Assembly (NCBI GenBank): GCA_003141795.1
Contig: PLNO01000135.1
Span: forward strand, 1,736-26,986
Length of the DNA: 25,251 nucleotides
Direction of reading: 5' to 3'
Source of the DNA: Spirochaetaceae bacterium
Lineage (GTDB): Bacteria > Spirochaetota > Spirochaetia > SZUA-6 > Fen-1364
This document shows positions 15,524 through 18,655 of the stretch, one piece after another. The notes beneath the pieces are model-generated. The model was given only the letters and a program-made list of their open reading frames with translations, ran no database searches and was not told the origin of the DNA. The stretch's first letter is position 1, and each line of letters starts with the position of its first letter. The position numbers and the translations under genes are program-made.

Positions 15524-18500
15524 TCACGCTCCTCTCTCTTGTCTTCCGCCGTTGCCCGCCGCTGCCGCGACCTCCTCACGGAAGTCGCACCGCAGACAGC
15601 GCTTCGCCTCTTCCAGCGCCACGGCGCGCGGCCATGTCGTCTCCACCTCTCTGAAGGTCCCCCTGCGGCTTGCAATGGGGATCATCGTCATGCCGGGCCG
15701 GGCGCCGGGGACGGGGTCAGCCTCTGGATCGAAGAACGTGTCCACGATCCTGCTGTCCCGCCATACCGCATGGTCCGCGCCGGTGAGGAACCTGTCGATG
15801 CCGGCCGCCGCCCGCTCACCGCCCGCGATGGCCTCCACGACCGAGGCCGGTCCGTTGGCGGCGTCTCCTCCGGCGAACACCCAGTCGACGGACGTCCTGC
15901 CCGTGACGGGATCCGCGGCGAGGTACTTGCGCGCGTTCAAAGCGACAGAAACGCCGTCGAAAAGCCCGTCCGCCTTCAGCGTCTGGCCGATCGCGGCGAT
16001 GACCATGTCGGCGGCGAGGACGTAGTCGTTCGCCCCCTTTGCCACGGGCGTGCGCCGCCCTGTCCTGTCGAAATCCCCCAGCTCCATGGTGCGGACCTTT
16101 ACGGCAGACACGCGGCCGGACTTTGCCACGAGCTCCACCGGCGCCGCGAGGAACTGGAACTTCACCCCTTCACGCTCGGCTTCCTCCACCTCTTCCTCGT
16201 AGGCGGGCATCTCCGCCCGGGTCCGACGGTAGAGCACCGTTGCACTTTCAGCGCCCAGCCGAAGTGATGTGCGCGCGGCATCCACGGCAGCGTTGCCGCC
16301 GCCGATCACCACGACATTGCGGCCCACTGCCGCCTTGCCGGTGAGGTTGTATTCCCGCAGGAATCCCAGCGCGTCCTCCACACCCTTCATGTCCTCCCCT
16401 TCCATGCCGAGCCCCATGCCGTTGGGCGCGCCCACGGCGATGAACGCCGCCTCGTATCCCTGGTTCTTGAGGTCGGTGAGGGAGAAATCCTTCCCGAGCT
16501 TCTTCTTCGTCTTGATCGTCACGCCCATGTCCGCGATGCCCTGGATCTCCCGTGAGAGGATGTCGCGGGGCAGGCGGTAGGCGGGGATGGCCTGGAGCAG
16601 CATTCCGCCCGGCTTGTCCGCCGCCTCGAACACCGTCGGCTTGTAGCCGAGGCGCGCGAGGAAGTACGCGCAGGACAGCCCCGCGGGGCCGGCGCCGACG
16701 ATCGCAACCTTGCGCCTGGCGTTGGCGCCGTTGCCGATCGGGTCGGGGATCTGGAAGCCCTTCTCCTGATCGGAGAGGAAGCGCTTCACGGCGCGCACGG
16801 ACAGCGGTTCGTCCAGCGTCGATCTCCTGCACTTGGATTCGCAGGGATGGAAGCACACGCGCGCACAGACCGCGACGAACGGGTTTCTCTCCCTGTGCAG
16901 ACGGAGCGCCTCGTTGAAGCGTTTCTCACCGGTGAGGCTCACGAAGCCGGGGATGTCCACGCCCGCCGGACACCCGTTCTGACACGGGGCGCGGACGAGC
17001 TCGGCGCAGACGCCGGCCCGGCACTTGTGGTCCCTGATGTGCTCGACGAACTCCTCCCGGAAATACCGGATGAACGAGAGGACGGGATTGGGCGCGGTCT
17101 GGCCCAGCCCGCAGAGCGCCGTGTCTTTGATCGTCGTGCCGAGCGAAAGGAGGCGCTCGATGTCGCCGTCCTGACCCTTGCCCGCGCAGATCCGCTCGAG
17201 GATCTCGAGCATCCGCCGGGTGCCGACCCTGCACGGCGTGCACTTGCCGCACGACTCGTCCTGCGTGAACTCCAGGAAGAACCGGGCCATGTCGACCATG
17301 CAGGAGTCCTCGTCCATGACGATGAGCCCGCCCGATCCCATGATGGCCCCGAGCTCCGTGATCGACTCGTAGTCGACAGGCACGTTGAGGTGCTCCCGGG
17401 GGATGCAGCCGCCCGACGGTCCGCCGATCTGCGCCGCCTTGAACTTCTTCCCGTTGGGGATGCCGCCGCCGATGTCGTAGATGATCTCTCCCAGCGGAAC
17501 GCCCATGTTGACCTCGACGAGGCCGACATTGTTCACCTTGCCGGTGAGGGCGAAGATCTTCGTGCCGGGGCTCTTCGGGGTGCCCACGGACCTGAACCAG
17601 TCCGAGCCGTTGGAGATGATGAGCGGAACGTTCGCCAGCGTTTCAACGTTGTTGAGAACGGTCGGCTTCTCCCAGAGACCCGCCACGGCGGGGAACGGCG
17701 GACGGGGTCGCGGCTCGCCGCGCTTGCCCTCGATGGAGCGCATCAGCGCCGTCTCTTCGCCACACACGAAAGCACCTGATCCGCGCGCGATGTCGATGTC
17801 GAAATCGAAACCGATGCCGAGGATGTCCTTGCCCAGGAGCCCGCGCTCACGGCACTGGGCGATGGCGAGGTTCAGCCGCTCGATGGCCAGCGGGTACTCC
17901 GCGCGGCAGTAGATGTAGCCCTGCGATGCGCCGATGGCGCGCGCTCCGATGATCATGCCCTCCAGGACCGCGTGCGGATCGCTCTCCAGCACGCTCCTGT
18001 CCATGAAGGCGCCCGGGTCCCCTTCATCCGCGTTGCAGAGGAAGTACTTCTGATCCGATTTCACCTTCGCGGCGAACTCCCACTTCATGCCGGTGGGGAA
18101 GCCCGCTCCGCCGCGGCCGCGCAGGCCCGATTTCTTCATCTCCTCCACGATCTGCGCGGGGGTCATCTCCAGCAGCGCTTTCGCCGTGGCGATATAGCCG
18201 CCGCGGCCGATGTACTCTTCGATGCTTGTCGCCGAGATGCGTCCCTTGTTGTGCAGGACGCGCAGGTTCTGACGGGCGAAGAAGGGGATATCCGCGTAAT
18301 GGGGAATCACCGCCTGCGTGACGGGGTGACGGAACATGAGCCGCTCGACGGTCCTCCCTTTGAGGATGTGCTCCTCCACCAGCTCGGGCATGTCCTCGGG
18401 GGTGAGCTTCTGATAGAAGTACCCGCCCGGATACACGACCATGATGGGCCCGCACGCGCAGAAGCCGTTGCAGCCCGTCCTCACCACGGAGACCTCACCC

Positions 18501-18655
18501 GATGCGCGGGCGGCCTCCATGTCCTCTATGGCGACCTTGTCGGTGAGCCCGCGGGCCACCAGTTCCTTCACCAGCGCGTCGCGCACCTTCTCCGCCCCCG
18601 AGGAGACGCAGCCTGTGCCGAAGCACATGAGCAGATGCATGCGTGTGGACGTCAT
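15524..18655 (-). CDS. hndC: HndC (NuoF-like) fused to GltD/NfnB-type flavoprotein
   Basis: This 1043-residue fusion opens with a thioredoxin-like [2Fe-2S] domain (Cys11/16/62/66). A NuoF-type FMN/NADH module follows (RGRGGAGFPTGMKW at 179-192, NADEGDPGAFMDR at 208-220), then an SLBB region and the N3-type [4Fe-4S] site (Cys469/472/475 and Cys515). Normal HndC/HydB then carries a two-cluster ferredoxin domain. Here, after HKCRAGVC (543-550), the sequence passes straight into a GltD/NfnB-like module: [4Fe-4S] ligand sets near Cys545/550/558/562 and Cys597/601/605/609, FAD-binding VGAGPAGLSCA (653-663), NAD(P)-binding GGGNAAVDAA (785-794), YRRTRAEMPA suggestive of NADPH, a second FAD contact GGDAANGP, and CLRC near the end. 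The start ATG overlaps hndB (ATGA). It may link NAD(H), NADP(H) and the H2 site. Confidence 0.92.
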   Translation of the reverse strand: MTSTRMHLLMCFGTGCVSSGAEKVRDALVKELVARGLTDKVAIEDMEAARASGEVSVVRTGCNGFCACGPIMVVYPGGYFYQKLTPEDMPELVEEHILKGRTVERLMFRHPVTQAVIPHYADIPFFARQNLRVLHNKGRISATSIEEYIGRGGYIATAKALLEMTPAQIVEEMKKSGLRGRGGAGFPTGMKWEFAAKVKSDQKYFLCNADEGDPGAFMDRSVLESDPHAVLEGMIIGARAIGASQGYIYCRAEYPLAIERLNLAIAQCRERGLLGKDILGIGFDFDIDIARGSGAFVCGEETALMRSIEGKRGEPRPRPPFPAVAGLWEKPTVLNNVETLANVPLIISNGSDWFRSVGTPKSPGTKIFALTGKVNNVGLVEVNMGVPLGEIIYDIGGGIPNGKKFKAAQIGGPSGGCIPREHLNVPVDYESITELGAIMGSGGLIVMDEDSCMVDMARFFLEFTQDESCGKCTPCRVGTRRMLEILERICAGKGQDGDIERLLSLGTTIKDTALCGLGQTAPNPVLSFIRYFREEFVEHIRDHKCRAGVCAELVRAPCQNGCPAGVDIPGFVSLTGEKRFNEALRLHRERNPFVAVCARVCFHPCESKCRRSTLDEPLSVRAVKRFLSDQEKGFQIPDPIGNGANARRKVAIVGAGPAGLSCAYFLARLGYKPTVFEAADKPGGMLLQAIPAYRLPRDILSREIQGIADMGVTIKTKKKLGKDFSLTDLKNQGYEAAFIAVGAPNGMGLGMEGEDMKGVEDALGFLREYNLTGKAAVGRNVVVIGGGNAAVDAARTSLRLGAESATVLYRRTRAEMPAYEEEVEEAEREGVKFQFLAAPVELVAKSGRVSAVKVRTMELGDFDRTGRRTPVAKGANDYVLAADMVIAAIGQTLKADGLFDGVSVALNARKYLAADPVTGRTSVDWVFAGGDAANGPASVVEAIAGGERAAAGIDRFLTGADHAVWRDSRIVDTFFDPEADPVPGARPGMTMIPIASRRGTFREVETTWPRAVALEEAKRCLRCDFREEVAAAAGNGGRQERGA

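What the first reader, a model, noticed from the sequence alone, without database searches (positions are those of the whole stretch)
15524..18655. HndC fused to a GltD/NfnB flavoprotein in place of its ferredoxin tail
The NuoF-like electron-input subunit of an [FeFe]-hydrogenase normally ends in a two-[4Fe-4S] domain. Here that domain is replaced, directly after HKCRAGVC, by a complete FAD/NAD(P) module like GltD or NfnB with its own Fe-S ligands and a YRRTRAEMPA motif that suggests NADPH. Stn (Sporomusa-type Nfn) transhydrogenases combine HydB-like and NfnB-like subunits as separate proteins, as I recall. This operon would put both into one polypeptide together with a real H2 site, allowing an enzyme that balances H2, NADH, NADPH and ferredoxin. 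The domain order is read from sequence; the combined activity is inference.
Basis: partly seen in the sequence, partly recalled or inferred. Interest (0 to 1): 0.75.

Follow-up and report, generated by a model that had tools for sequence, protein, structure and literature searches.

The report
Hydrogenase subunit fused to NADPH module
A subunit of a hydrogen-handling bacterial enzyme carries an NADPH-binding module where its relatives carry a ferredoxin-docking tail; this layout was described in print in 2024 and is widespread, but comparison here suggests that NADPH has taken over the role of ferredoxin and that the same module also stands beside enzymes other than this hydrogenase.

Summary
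The fusion is real: ORF 15524-18655(-), 1043 aa, between hndB and an intact [FeFe]-hydrogenase gene. It joins a HydB/NuoF core (1-550) to a GltD-like DPD_II+FAD/NAD(P) module (551-1025) exactly where HydB carries its ferredoxin tail. It is not an assembly error: the 120 best database hits share the layout, and a junction profile hits 168 of 1678 surveyed genomes. It is not new: Zheng & Huang 2024 (PMC11406978) describe it as 'sub-type I BfuB', function unresolved.

Added here: (1) the residue at the FAD-proximal cluster is K/H/R in 152 of 152 fusions, never the Glu of bifurcating NfnB; the module is circularly permuted like StnC, whose FAD is reported not to bifurcate. (2) The FMN core keeps published markers of bifurcating subunits and the B2/Zn hinge. 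(3) The fusion gene also stands beside [NiFe]-hydrogenase, formate dehydrogenase, Hdr and glutamate-synthase-like genes. (4) NuoF cores of fusions are not one clade (AU p 0.0014-0.0015): tails were probably exchanged at the hinge.

Best reading: FMN gates electrons between H2, NAD(H) and an arm that ends at NADP(H) instead of ferredoxin. No activity was measured.

The parts
15524..18655 (-). Fusion subunit (HndC/BfuB core + GltD-like NADP(H) module), 1043 aa
17006..18655 (-). HydB/NuoF-like core, residues 1-550: N-terminal [2Fe-2S] thioredoxin-like domain (C11, C16, C62, C66), FMN/NAD(H) domain, [4Fe-4S] B1 (C469, C472, C475, C515), B2/Zn hinge (C452, H539, C545, C550, and semi-conserved C490)
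   Evidence: Pfam; hinge residues aligned to A. mobile HydB C438/H525/C531/C536 (C476 = C490) in the printed rows, ligand numbers read; conservation
15581..17005 (-). GltD/StnC-like module, residues 551-1025: DPD_II clusters (distal C558, C609, C1020, C1023; proximal C562, C601, C605 + K624), FAD and NADP(H) Rossmann folds, YRRTRAEMPA at 809-818
   Evidence: the split of ligands between the two clusters is by homology to DPD ligands as I recall them and to StnC, not from a structure of this protein
13748..15517 (-). HndD/HydA: [FeFe]-hydrogenase with P1 FTSCSPGW, P2 SVMPCTAKK, P3 EVMTCPGGCIGGGGQ and N-terminal [2Fe-2S], His-[4Fe-4S] and two [4Fe-4S] motifs
   Evidence: NF040763 (NADH-dependent, group A6) 878.5 bits against cut-off 765; motifs
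18652..19065 (-). HndB/BfuD: small thioredoxin-like [2Fe-2S] protein, overlaps the start of the fusion by 4 nt
19058..19693 (-). HndA/BfuC: NuoE-like [2Fe-2S] subunit (start at 19693 inferred; the ORF is open from 19981)
   Evidence: PF01257 164.7 bits on the whole ORF; start inferred from the sequence
11672..13723 (-). [FeFe]-hydrogenase-domain sensor histidine kinase (group C-like) next to the operon
   Evidence: Fe_hyd_lg_C + HisKA + HATPase_c; also beside the fusion in L001, L005, L006 at 53-65% identity

Best explanation
The operon encodes a soluble HndABCD/HydABC-type [FeFe]-hydrogenase whose low-potential electron arm ends at NADP(H) instead of ferredoxin. SHOWN by sequence: an FMN core with marker residues of bifurcating HydB, the hinge site, and a C-terminal module of the StnC type whose proximal-cluster residue is Lys. 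INFERRED: H2 electrons pass from the H-cluster through HndD clusters and B1 to FMN. FMN reduces NAD+ and, through the HndA [2Fe-2S] cluster and the mobile hinge, passes electrons to the two DPD_II clusters and the FAD, which only exchanges hydride with NADP+ and does not itself bifurcate. Net: 2 H2 + NAD+ + NADP+ <-> NADH + NADPH + 2 H+, reversible. In the H2-forming direction NADPH helps NADH to make H2. With the physiological potentials tabulated in PMC9304861 this would raise the equilibrium H2 pressure from about 3 Pa (NADH alone) to about 150 Pa.
For: The FMN core is of the bifurcating type by criteria published by Losey 2020: A216 in 149 of 152 (3 gaps), M218 in 149 of 152, GGPSG in 147 of 152 fusions, against T and K in 9 of 10 NuoF-like controls without ferredoxin tail; the remaining published residue (Tm HydB F367) was not tested. 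Hinge: C452 and C550 in 152 of 152, H539 and C545 in 151 of 152 with an X in the other. The FAD site is of the non-bifurcating type: residue 624 aligns with StnC K170 and NfnL Glu; K 138, H 11, R 3, E 0 of 152. Control: of 17 unfused GltD modules from the same loci and genomes, 7 in classic order all have E and 10 with the segment behind all have K (one of the ten has a segment on both sides). The Stn authors report StnC's FAD as the non-bifurcating flavin. NADP(H): YRRT..EMPA is shared with StnC, which was assayed with NADPH. The module sits on the ferredoxin arm, not on the H2 side as in Stn. Fusion and Fd-tailed HydABC operons stand side by side in L021, L022, L054 and L055, which fits different roles.
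Against: Nothing was assayed. Loss of the B3/B4 clusters went with loss of bifurcation in Syntrophomonas wolfei Hyd1 (as reported), and that published rule would make this enzyme non-bifurcating. NADPH is a weaker reductant than ferredoxin, so the gain from coupling is small. The N-terminal [2Fe-2S] (B5) of bifurcating HydB is complete in the window but not in all fusions: C11 is C in 114 and C16 in 109 of 152, C16 being G in 24 (some gaps come from trimmed starts). StnC C114, which helps hold its proximal cluster, is V, I, A or T in all 152. One tail-less control (L256) has GGPSG and one (L207) keeps the hinge C and H, so these markers are not absolute. The path from hinge to DPD_II clusters was not measured. 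Four of 152 fusions, all in the formate dehydrogenase class, have lost the YRR motif.
Confidence: 0.48

Rival explanations
1. Dual-specificity, non-bifurcating hydrogenase/transhydrogenase: FMN serves NAD(H), FAD serves NADP(H), and electrons equilibrate freely among H2, NADH and NADPH.
For: The ferredoxin domain, considered necessary for bifurcation, is absent; the S. wolfei enzyme without it and the S. aciditrophicus enzyme make H2 from NADH alone.
Against: The FMN core keeps most of the markers that separate bifurcating from non-bifurcating subunits, and the hinge, which Nqo1 lacks, is present in all or all but one of 152.
Confidence: 0.25
2. Four-carrier enzyme of the first reader: H2, NADH, NADPH and ferredoxin, with ferredoxin docking at the distal DPD_II cluster.
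For: The distal cluster of NfnL is where ferredoxin is thought to dock (recalled); a DPD_II pair of clusters replaces B3/B4.
Against: The docking domain is gone; the proximal residue is Lys in place of Glu; none of the ten window proteins scanned is a small ferredoxin.
Confidence: 0.13
3. Two bifurcation centres, FMN-FeS and FAD, as proposed by Zheng & Huang 2024 for sub-type I BfuB.
For: Two flavin sites in one polypeptide.
Against: NfnB-type Glu in 0 of 152 fusions, permuted StnC-type module; StnC's FAD is reported to have lost bifurcation.
Confidence: 0.08
4. Artefact: two genes joined by an assembly error or frameshift.
For: None found.
Against: Same layout in genomes of several phyla and in the 2024 paper.
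Confidence: 0.01

Closest known systems
Sub-type I BfuB of BfuABC(D) [FeFe]-hydrogenases (Zheng & Huang 2024, PMC11406978)
   Same: B3/B4 domain replaced by DPD_II + FAD/NAD(P) domain; gene order A-B-D-C; [quoted passage not shown]
   Different: They say that relatives in those phyla generally lack BfuD, while the window has it; they proposed the FAD as a possible second bifurcation centre and covered group A3 [FeFe]-hydrogenases; the sections read give no test of the proximal-cluster residue
StnABC / Nfn-Bfu transhydrogenase (Sporomusa ovata 8oh5, C. saccharolyticus 9bov)
   Same: HydB-like core and a GltD module with the RCLxC segment behind; S. ovata has Lys at the proximal cluster; closest solved relatives of the module
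   Different: There the GltD module is in another subunit, on the side where H2 electrons enter HydABC; the HydB-like subunit keeps its ferredoxin tail
HydABC / HndABCD [FeFe]-hydrogenase (T. maritima, T. kivui, A. woodii)
   Same: Core, hinge, HydC-like and HydA-like partners
   Different: HydB ends in a two-[4Fe-4S] ferredoxin domain
NfnAB (P. furiosus 5jca)
   Same: GltD fold, two [4Fe-4S] clusters, FAD, NADP(H)
   Different: Glu at the proximal cluster, classic segment order, bifurcating FAD
NiFe-HydABCSL of A. mobile (7t2r)
   Same: Best single match to the core by sequence (798.8 bits); in 17 of 154 loci here the fusion gene also stands beside [NiFe]-hydrogenase genes
   Different: Its HydB keeps the ferredoxin tail

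Membership tests
Sub-type I BfuABC(D) (Zheng & Huang 2024) | BfuB with DPD_II + FAD/NAD(P) domain in place of B3/B4 | tested here: met
Sub-type I BfuABC(D) (Zheng & Huang 2024) | Gene order BfuA-BfuB-BfuD-BfuC | tested here: met
   HndD, fusion, HndB, HndA in that order along the window
Sub-type I BfuABC(D) (Zheng & Huang 2024) | Place in the published sub-type I clade | not tested
   their alignment was not available
BfuABC family (Schut 2022, PMC9304861) | BfuB holds the 4Fe-4S ferredoxin-type domain IPR017896 | tested here: not met
   Pfam (used in place of InterPro) lists no Fer4 family other than Fer4_20 at E <= 0.001; definition read
BfuABC family (Schut 2022, PMC9304861) | B1, B2 and B5 cluster ligands, NuoF domains | tested here: met
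   for the window protein; B5 cysteines are not kept in all fusions
BfuABC family (Schut 2022, PMC9304861) | Electron bifurcation | not testable with these tools
   needs enzyme assay
Bifurcating NfnB/NfnL flavoprotein | Glu ligand to the FAD-proximal [4Fe-4S] cluster | tested here: not met
   K624 in the window; E in 0 of 152 fusions
Bifurcating NfnB/NfnL flavoprotein | NfnA-like partner gene beside it | tested here: not met
   none among the window proteins scanned; not every ORF was scanned
StnC-type (permuted) GltD module | RCLxC segment after the Rossmann domains and Lys at the proximal cluster | tested here: met
Stn transhydrogenase | GltD module within the NuoG-like subunit, no H-cluster, ferredoxin tail on the HydB-like subunit | tested here: not met
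NADH-dependent [FeFe]-hydrogenase catalytic subunit (NF040763, group A6) | Score above curated cut-off and intact P1-P3 motifs | tested here: met
   878.5 against 765 bits

The most novel reading that the evidence does not exclude
A whole family of enzymes, parallel to the BfuABC family but outside its published definition, uses NADP(H) instead of ferredoxin as the low-potential partner of an FMN-gated bifurcating core. The module was swapped onto HydB cores at the hinge, more than once, and serves [FeFe]-hydrogenase, [NiFe]-hydrogenase (Hox-like and Mvh/Hdr-like), formate dehydrogenase, HdrA and glutamate-synthase-like catalytic proteins. This would be ferredoxin-free electron bifurcation between NADH and NADPH.
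Probability: 0.35. Interest if true: 0.78.

Novelty: new member of a known kind. Interest (0 to 1): 0.45.

Why it matters
If NADP(H) really replaces ferredoxin, anaerobes that carry this module can couple H2 or formate turnover to both nicotinamide pools without ferredoxin, and could form H2 at pressures about fifty times above what NADH alone allows (calculated). It would show that the bifurcating FMN core is a general splitter whose low-potential outlet can be changed by swapping one domain. It would also change the reading of many genes now annotated NuoF, and it turns an open question of the 2024 paper (which flavin bifurcates?) into a residue-level test.

Tried and rejected
Considered and rejected: assembly error (homologues); bifurcating NfnB-type FAD (residue 624); membership in Stn (module in the wrong subunit, H-cluster present). 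The deep-sea Chloroflexi FdhB of PMC5736913 was looked at as an earlier report of a formate dehydrogenase with this fusion; the text does not show a GltD module, so it is not claimed. The ANME paper PMC9012536 (passages) has NfnB-like inserts in HdrA, not in NuoF. The recalled idea that KorC of Azoarcus is a related NADP-specific module gave nothing. Distances between clusters in the AlphaFold2 model could not be measured, since no coordinate file is laid in the box. The Tm HydB F367 criterion of Losey could not be placed with certainty. The structural hit lists are filled by NuoF-type chains; GltD-type chains are few in them, which says nothing about absence. A glutamine-synthetase-like gene beside the glutamate-synthase-like class was found in 1 of 9 loci, the one the query came from. 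Against the tail-swap reading: in the GltD-module tree one clade of fusions is not rejected (p 0.274), the unfused sample there is small (17), all trees are quick searches, and strongly supported branches alone force only 1 or 3 changes of the fused/unfused label in the NuoF-core trees.

In print or not: I did not come across the [NiFe], formate dehydrogenase, Hdr and glutamate-synthase-like neighbours of this fusion in searches. The library is open-access only; supplements and figures were not seen, and Fig. 4 of PMC11406978 may show more. So this is 'not seen', not 'not in print'.

Papers, what was seen: PMC11406978 outline with abstract, sections 7-9 and passages; PMC10482914 passages and sections 8-10; PMC9304861, PMC9499530, PMC8880783, PMC9012536 and PMC8097209 passages; PMC5736913 passages and section 16; PMC7311640 outline with abstract, passages and section 17; all others search listings with the start of the abstract.
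Full report
WHAT IS THERE. The reverse strand carries hndA (19058-19693), hndB (18652-19065), the fusion (15524-18655) and hndD (13748-15517), with overlaps of 8 and 4 nt and a gap of 6 nt between them. The fusion reads through 1043 codons. Its Pfam order is thioredoxin-like [2Fe-2S], FMN domain, SLBB (weak), NADH_4Fe-4S, then Fer4_20 (DPD domain II) and Pyr_redox_2. HndD scores 878.5 bits against a cut-off of 765 for the NADH-dependent [FeFe]-hydrogenase model NF040763 and has intact P1, P2 and P3 motifs. 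An AlphaFold2 model from a 44-row alignment has mean pLDDT 86.7; its first half matches HydB/StnB-type chains and its second half T. sibiricus NfnA and Stn/Nfn chains.

HOW COMMON. A database search scored 7997 proteins (its cap) and listed 120, one of them the window's own; all 120 carry Pfam matches to both halves and all but one (832 aa) are 980-1090 aa long. One source names two of them 'NADH:ubiquinone oxidoreductase subunit F/NADPH-dependent glutamate synthase beta'. A scan of species genomes found 480 stretches that encode a relative of the query, of which the best 80 were kept; by record title they come from Spirochaetes, Planctomycetes, Kiritimatiellae, Omnitrophota, Bacteroidetes, Chloroflexi, Acidobacteria and others. 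A 26-row profile of the junction alone (A1), at E 1e-50 or better, hit 10 of 251, 25 of 247, 36 of 240, 52 of 299, 7 of 195, 9 of 247 and 29 of 199 genomes drawn from the phyla of seven genomes, 168 of 1678 in all. The seven centre genomes were chosen because they carry the fusion and are counted. A few matches with open frames of about 620-940 aa look like a shorter relative without a full NuoF core; by score and frame length three genomes (G752, G994, G1018) rest on such matches only, of which one (L279) was inspected.

ALREADY IN PRINT. Zheng & Huang 2024 (PMC11406978) describe five sub-types of group A3 [FeFe]-hydrogenase in Hydrogenedentota. [quoted passage not shown] gene order BfuABDC; relatives in Spirochaetota and other phyla, where they generally lack BfuD. 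The window has that layout and order, and it has BfuD (HndB). They suggest that FAD might be a second bifurcation centre and leave it open. The wider BfuABC family of Schut 2022 is defined by a ferredoxin-type domain in BfuB (IPR017896), which this protein lacks, so I infer that that survey left it out.

WHICH FLAVIN. In NfnB the cluster next to the FAD has a Glu ligand. In StnC, whose FAD is reported as non-bifurcating, that residue is K170. In the printed alignments StnC K170 and R239 align with K624 and R694 of the window protein, and the NfnL Glu aligns with K624 (positions counted by hand). Over 152 non-redundant fusions residue 624 is K in 138, H in 11, R in 3 and E in none (L212 and L279 were dropped before this count as not true fusions). 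In the 120 listed database proteins it is K in all. Among 17 unfused GltD modules in the same loci and genomes, L212 and L279 included, the residue splits cleanly: 7 modules with the RCxxC segment in front have E, 10 with it behind have K (one of the ten, L289, has a segment on both sides). The fusion's segment is behind (C1020, C1023), and phmmer shows the permutation directly: residues 453-482 of the query piece align to the start and 15-418 to the rest of 4ylf_B. So the module is of the StnC type and its FAD is probably a plain NADP(H) port. One difference from S. ovata StnC: its C114 is V, I, A or T in all 152 fusions.

IS THE FMN CORE OF THE BIFURCATING TYPE? Losey 2020 lists residues that separate bifurcating from non-bifurcating beta subunits. 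The fusions have A216 in 149 of 152, M218 in 149 of 152 and GGPSG in 147 of 152. Of ten NuoF-like controls without ferredoxin tail, nine have T and all ten have K at the first two places, and nine lack GGPSG (the ten were set apart by me for lack of such a tail; of the other 26 unfused rows 20 show two CxxCxxCxxxC motifs, 4 one and 2 none). The five ligands of the B2 site of A. mobile HydB (C438, C476, H525, C531, C536) correspond to C452, C490, H539, C545 and C550 (counted by hand). C452 and C550 are in 152 of 152, H539 and C545 in 151 of 152 with an X in the other; C490 is C in 76, T in 45 and S in 25, the paper calling its C476 semi-conserved. Another group models this site as Zn. Against: the N-terminal [2Fe-2S] cysteines, complete in the window, are C in only 114 (C11) and 109 (C16) of 152, and one tail-less control keeps C452 and H539. 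On balance the core looks like that of a bifurcating enzyme although the ferredoxin arm has been exchanged.

NOT ONLY THIS HYDROGENASE. Neighbourhoods of 160 loci (80, 80 fetched; 154 left after 95% clustering) were scored by tblastn against reference partners: [FeFe] 80, [NiFe] 17, formate dehydrogenase 15, glutamate-synthase-like 9, [NiFe]+Hdr-like 4, Hdr-like 2, [NiFe]+glutamate-synthase-like 1, no partner 6 (two of them L212 and L279), cut by a contig end 20. The first 80 loci are those nearest to the window and the second 80 were picked by me, mostly from weaker hits, so these are not frequencies. Representatives were checked: L060 NuoG-like + Oxidored_q6 small subunit + NiFeSe_Hases; L259 formate dehydrogenase alpha TIGR01591 869.3 bits (cut-off 666.25), L204 662.6 just under it; formate/nitrite transporter genes near 4 of 15 by tblastn, two confirmed by Pfam; L254 and L265 Glu_synthase behind a 240-aa protein with a Fer2_4 domain in L254; L255 HdrA2-like (835.3 bits, cut-off 1100) with a HoxU-like start; L264 with HdrA-like and, by eye, MvhD-like, small and large [NiFe] subunits. 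This spread parallels the 'third substrates' of the BfuABC family. I did not come across it in the searches made, which were not aimed at most of these classes (see Tried and rejected).

HOW IT AROSE. In a tree of the NuoF cores of 60 fusions and 36 unfused proteins one clade of fusions is rejected (AU p 0.0015). With only 26 unfused rows of Bfu type it stays so (p 0.0014). For the GltD modules (60 fused, 17 unfused) one clade is not rejected (p 0.274). A GltD tail exchanged among HydB cores at the hinge is the simplest reading; repeated loss or recombination is not excluded, and the trees are quick ones with many open forks.

MECHANISM. I favour FMN-gated coupling of H2 to NAD(H) and NADP(H), with NADP(H) in the place of ferredoxin (0.48). 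Against it stands the published view that loss of B3/B4 abolishes bifurcation. Free equilibration of H2, NADH and NADPH is the main rival (0.25). With NAD -280, NADP -380, ferredoxin -500 and H2 -414 mV (table), 1:1 use of NADH and NADPH reaches equilibrium at about 146 Pa H2, NADH alone at 3 Pa, and NADH with ferredoxin at 15.6 kPa. Everything about activity is inference.

VERDICT. Real, correctly read, described in 2024, widespread.

Noticed in passing
L060:9902-17025, also L062, L064, L072, L075, L078: In Dehalococcoidia/Chloroflexi loci the same fusion is followed by a NuoG-like protein and [NiFe]-hydrogenase subunits instead of an [FeFe] HydA.
   Followed up: yes
L254:5963-8328, L265:11138-13492, L237: The fusion sits before a HoxU-like protein and a glutamate-synthase-domain protein; the gene upstream in L254 looks by eye like a glutamine synthetase. 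Possibly a GOGAT with complex I-like input.
   Followed up: partly
L210, L216, L219, L220: Four formate dehydrogenase-class fusions have lost the YRR motif of the NADP(H) fold, so they may use another nucleotide or none.
   Followed up: no
L021:9367-20523: Fusion operon and a standard Fd-tailed HydABC operon in tandem; similar pairs in L022, L054, L055.
   Followed up: partly
window 21370-23016: Protein with HATPase, 4Fe-4S, a weak Fe_hyd_lg_C match and a FeS domain, between two DRTGG-domain proteins (21020-21373, 23013-23366): perhaps an H2- or redox-sensing set; relatives lie near the fusion in L001, L006 and L023.
   Followed up: no
window 20255-21019 and 19717-20286: PHP-domain protein and a lone HATPase_c protein directly upstream of hndA; relatives of both lie beside the fusion in L001, L006, L008 and L023, role unknown.
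   Followed up: no
window 9423-11730: Adjacent two-component genes (response regulator at 11314-11730, receiver plus HATPase_c protein at 9423-10916) next to the hydrogenase-domain kinase at 11672-13723.
   Followed up: no
window 5842-9003: 1053-aa glutamate dehydrogenase with ELFV_dehydrog and Bac_GDH_CD matches.
   Followed up: no
window 23606-25006: Sigma-54-dependent response regulator, possible regulator of the cluster.
   Followed up: no
L229, L230, L253: Fusion genes with no recognised catalytic partner on the same strand within about 7.6 kb; they may be stand-alone transhydrogenases or use a partner encoded elsewhere.
   Followed up: partly
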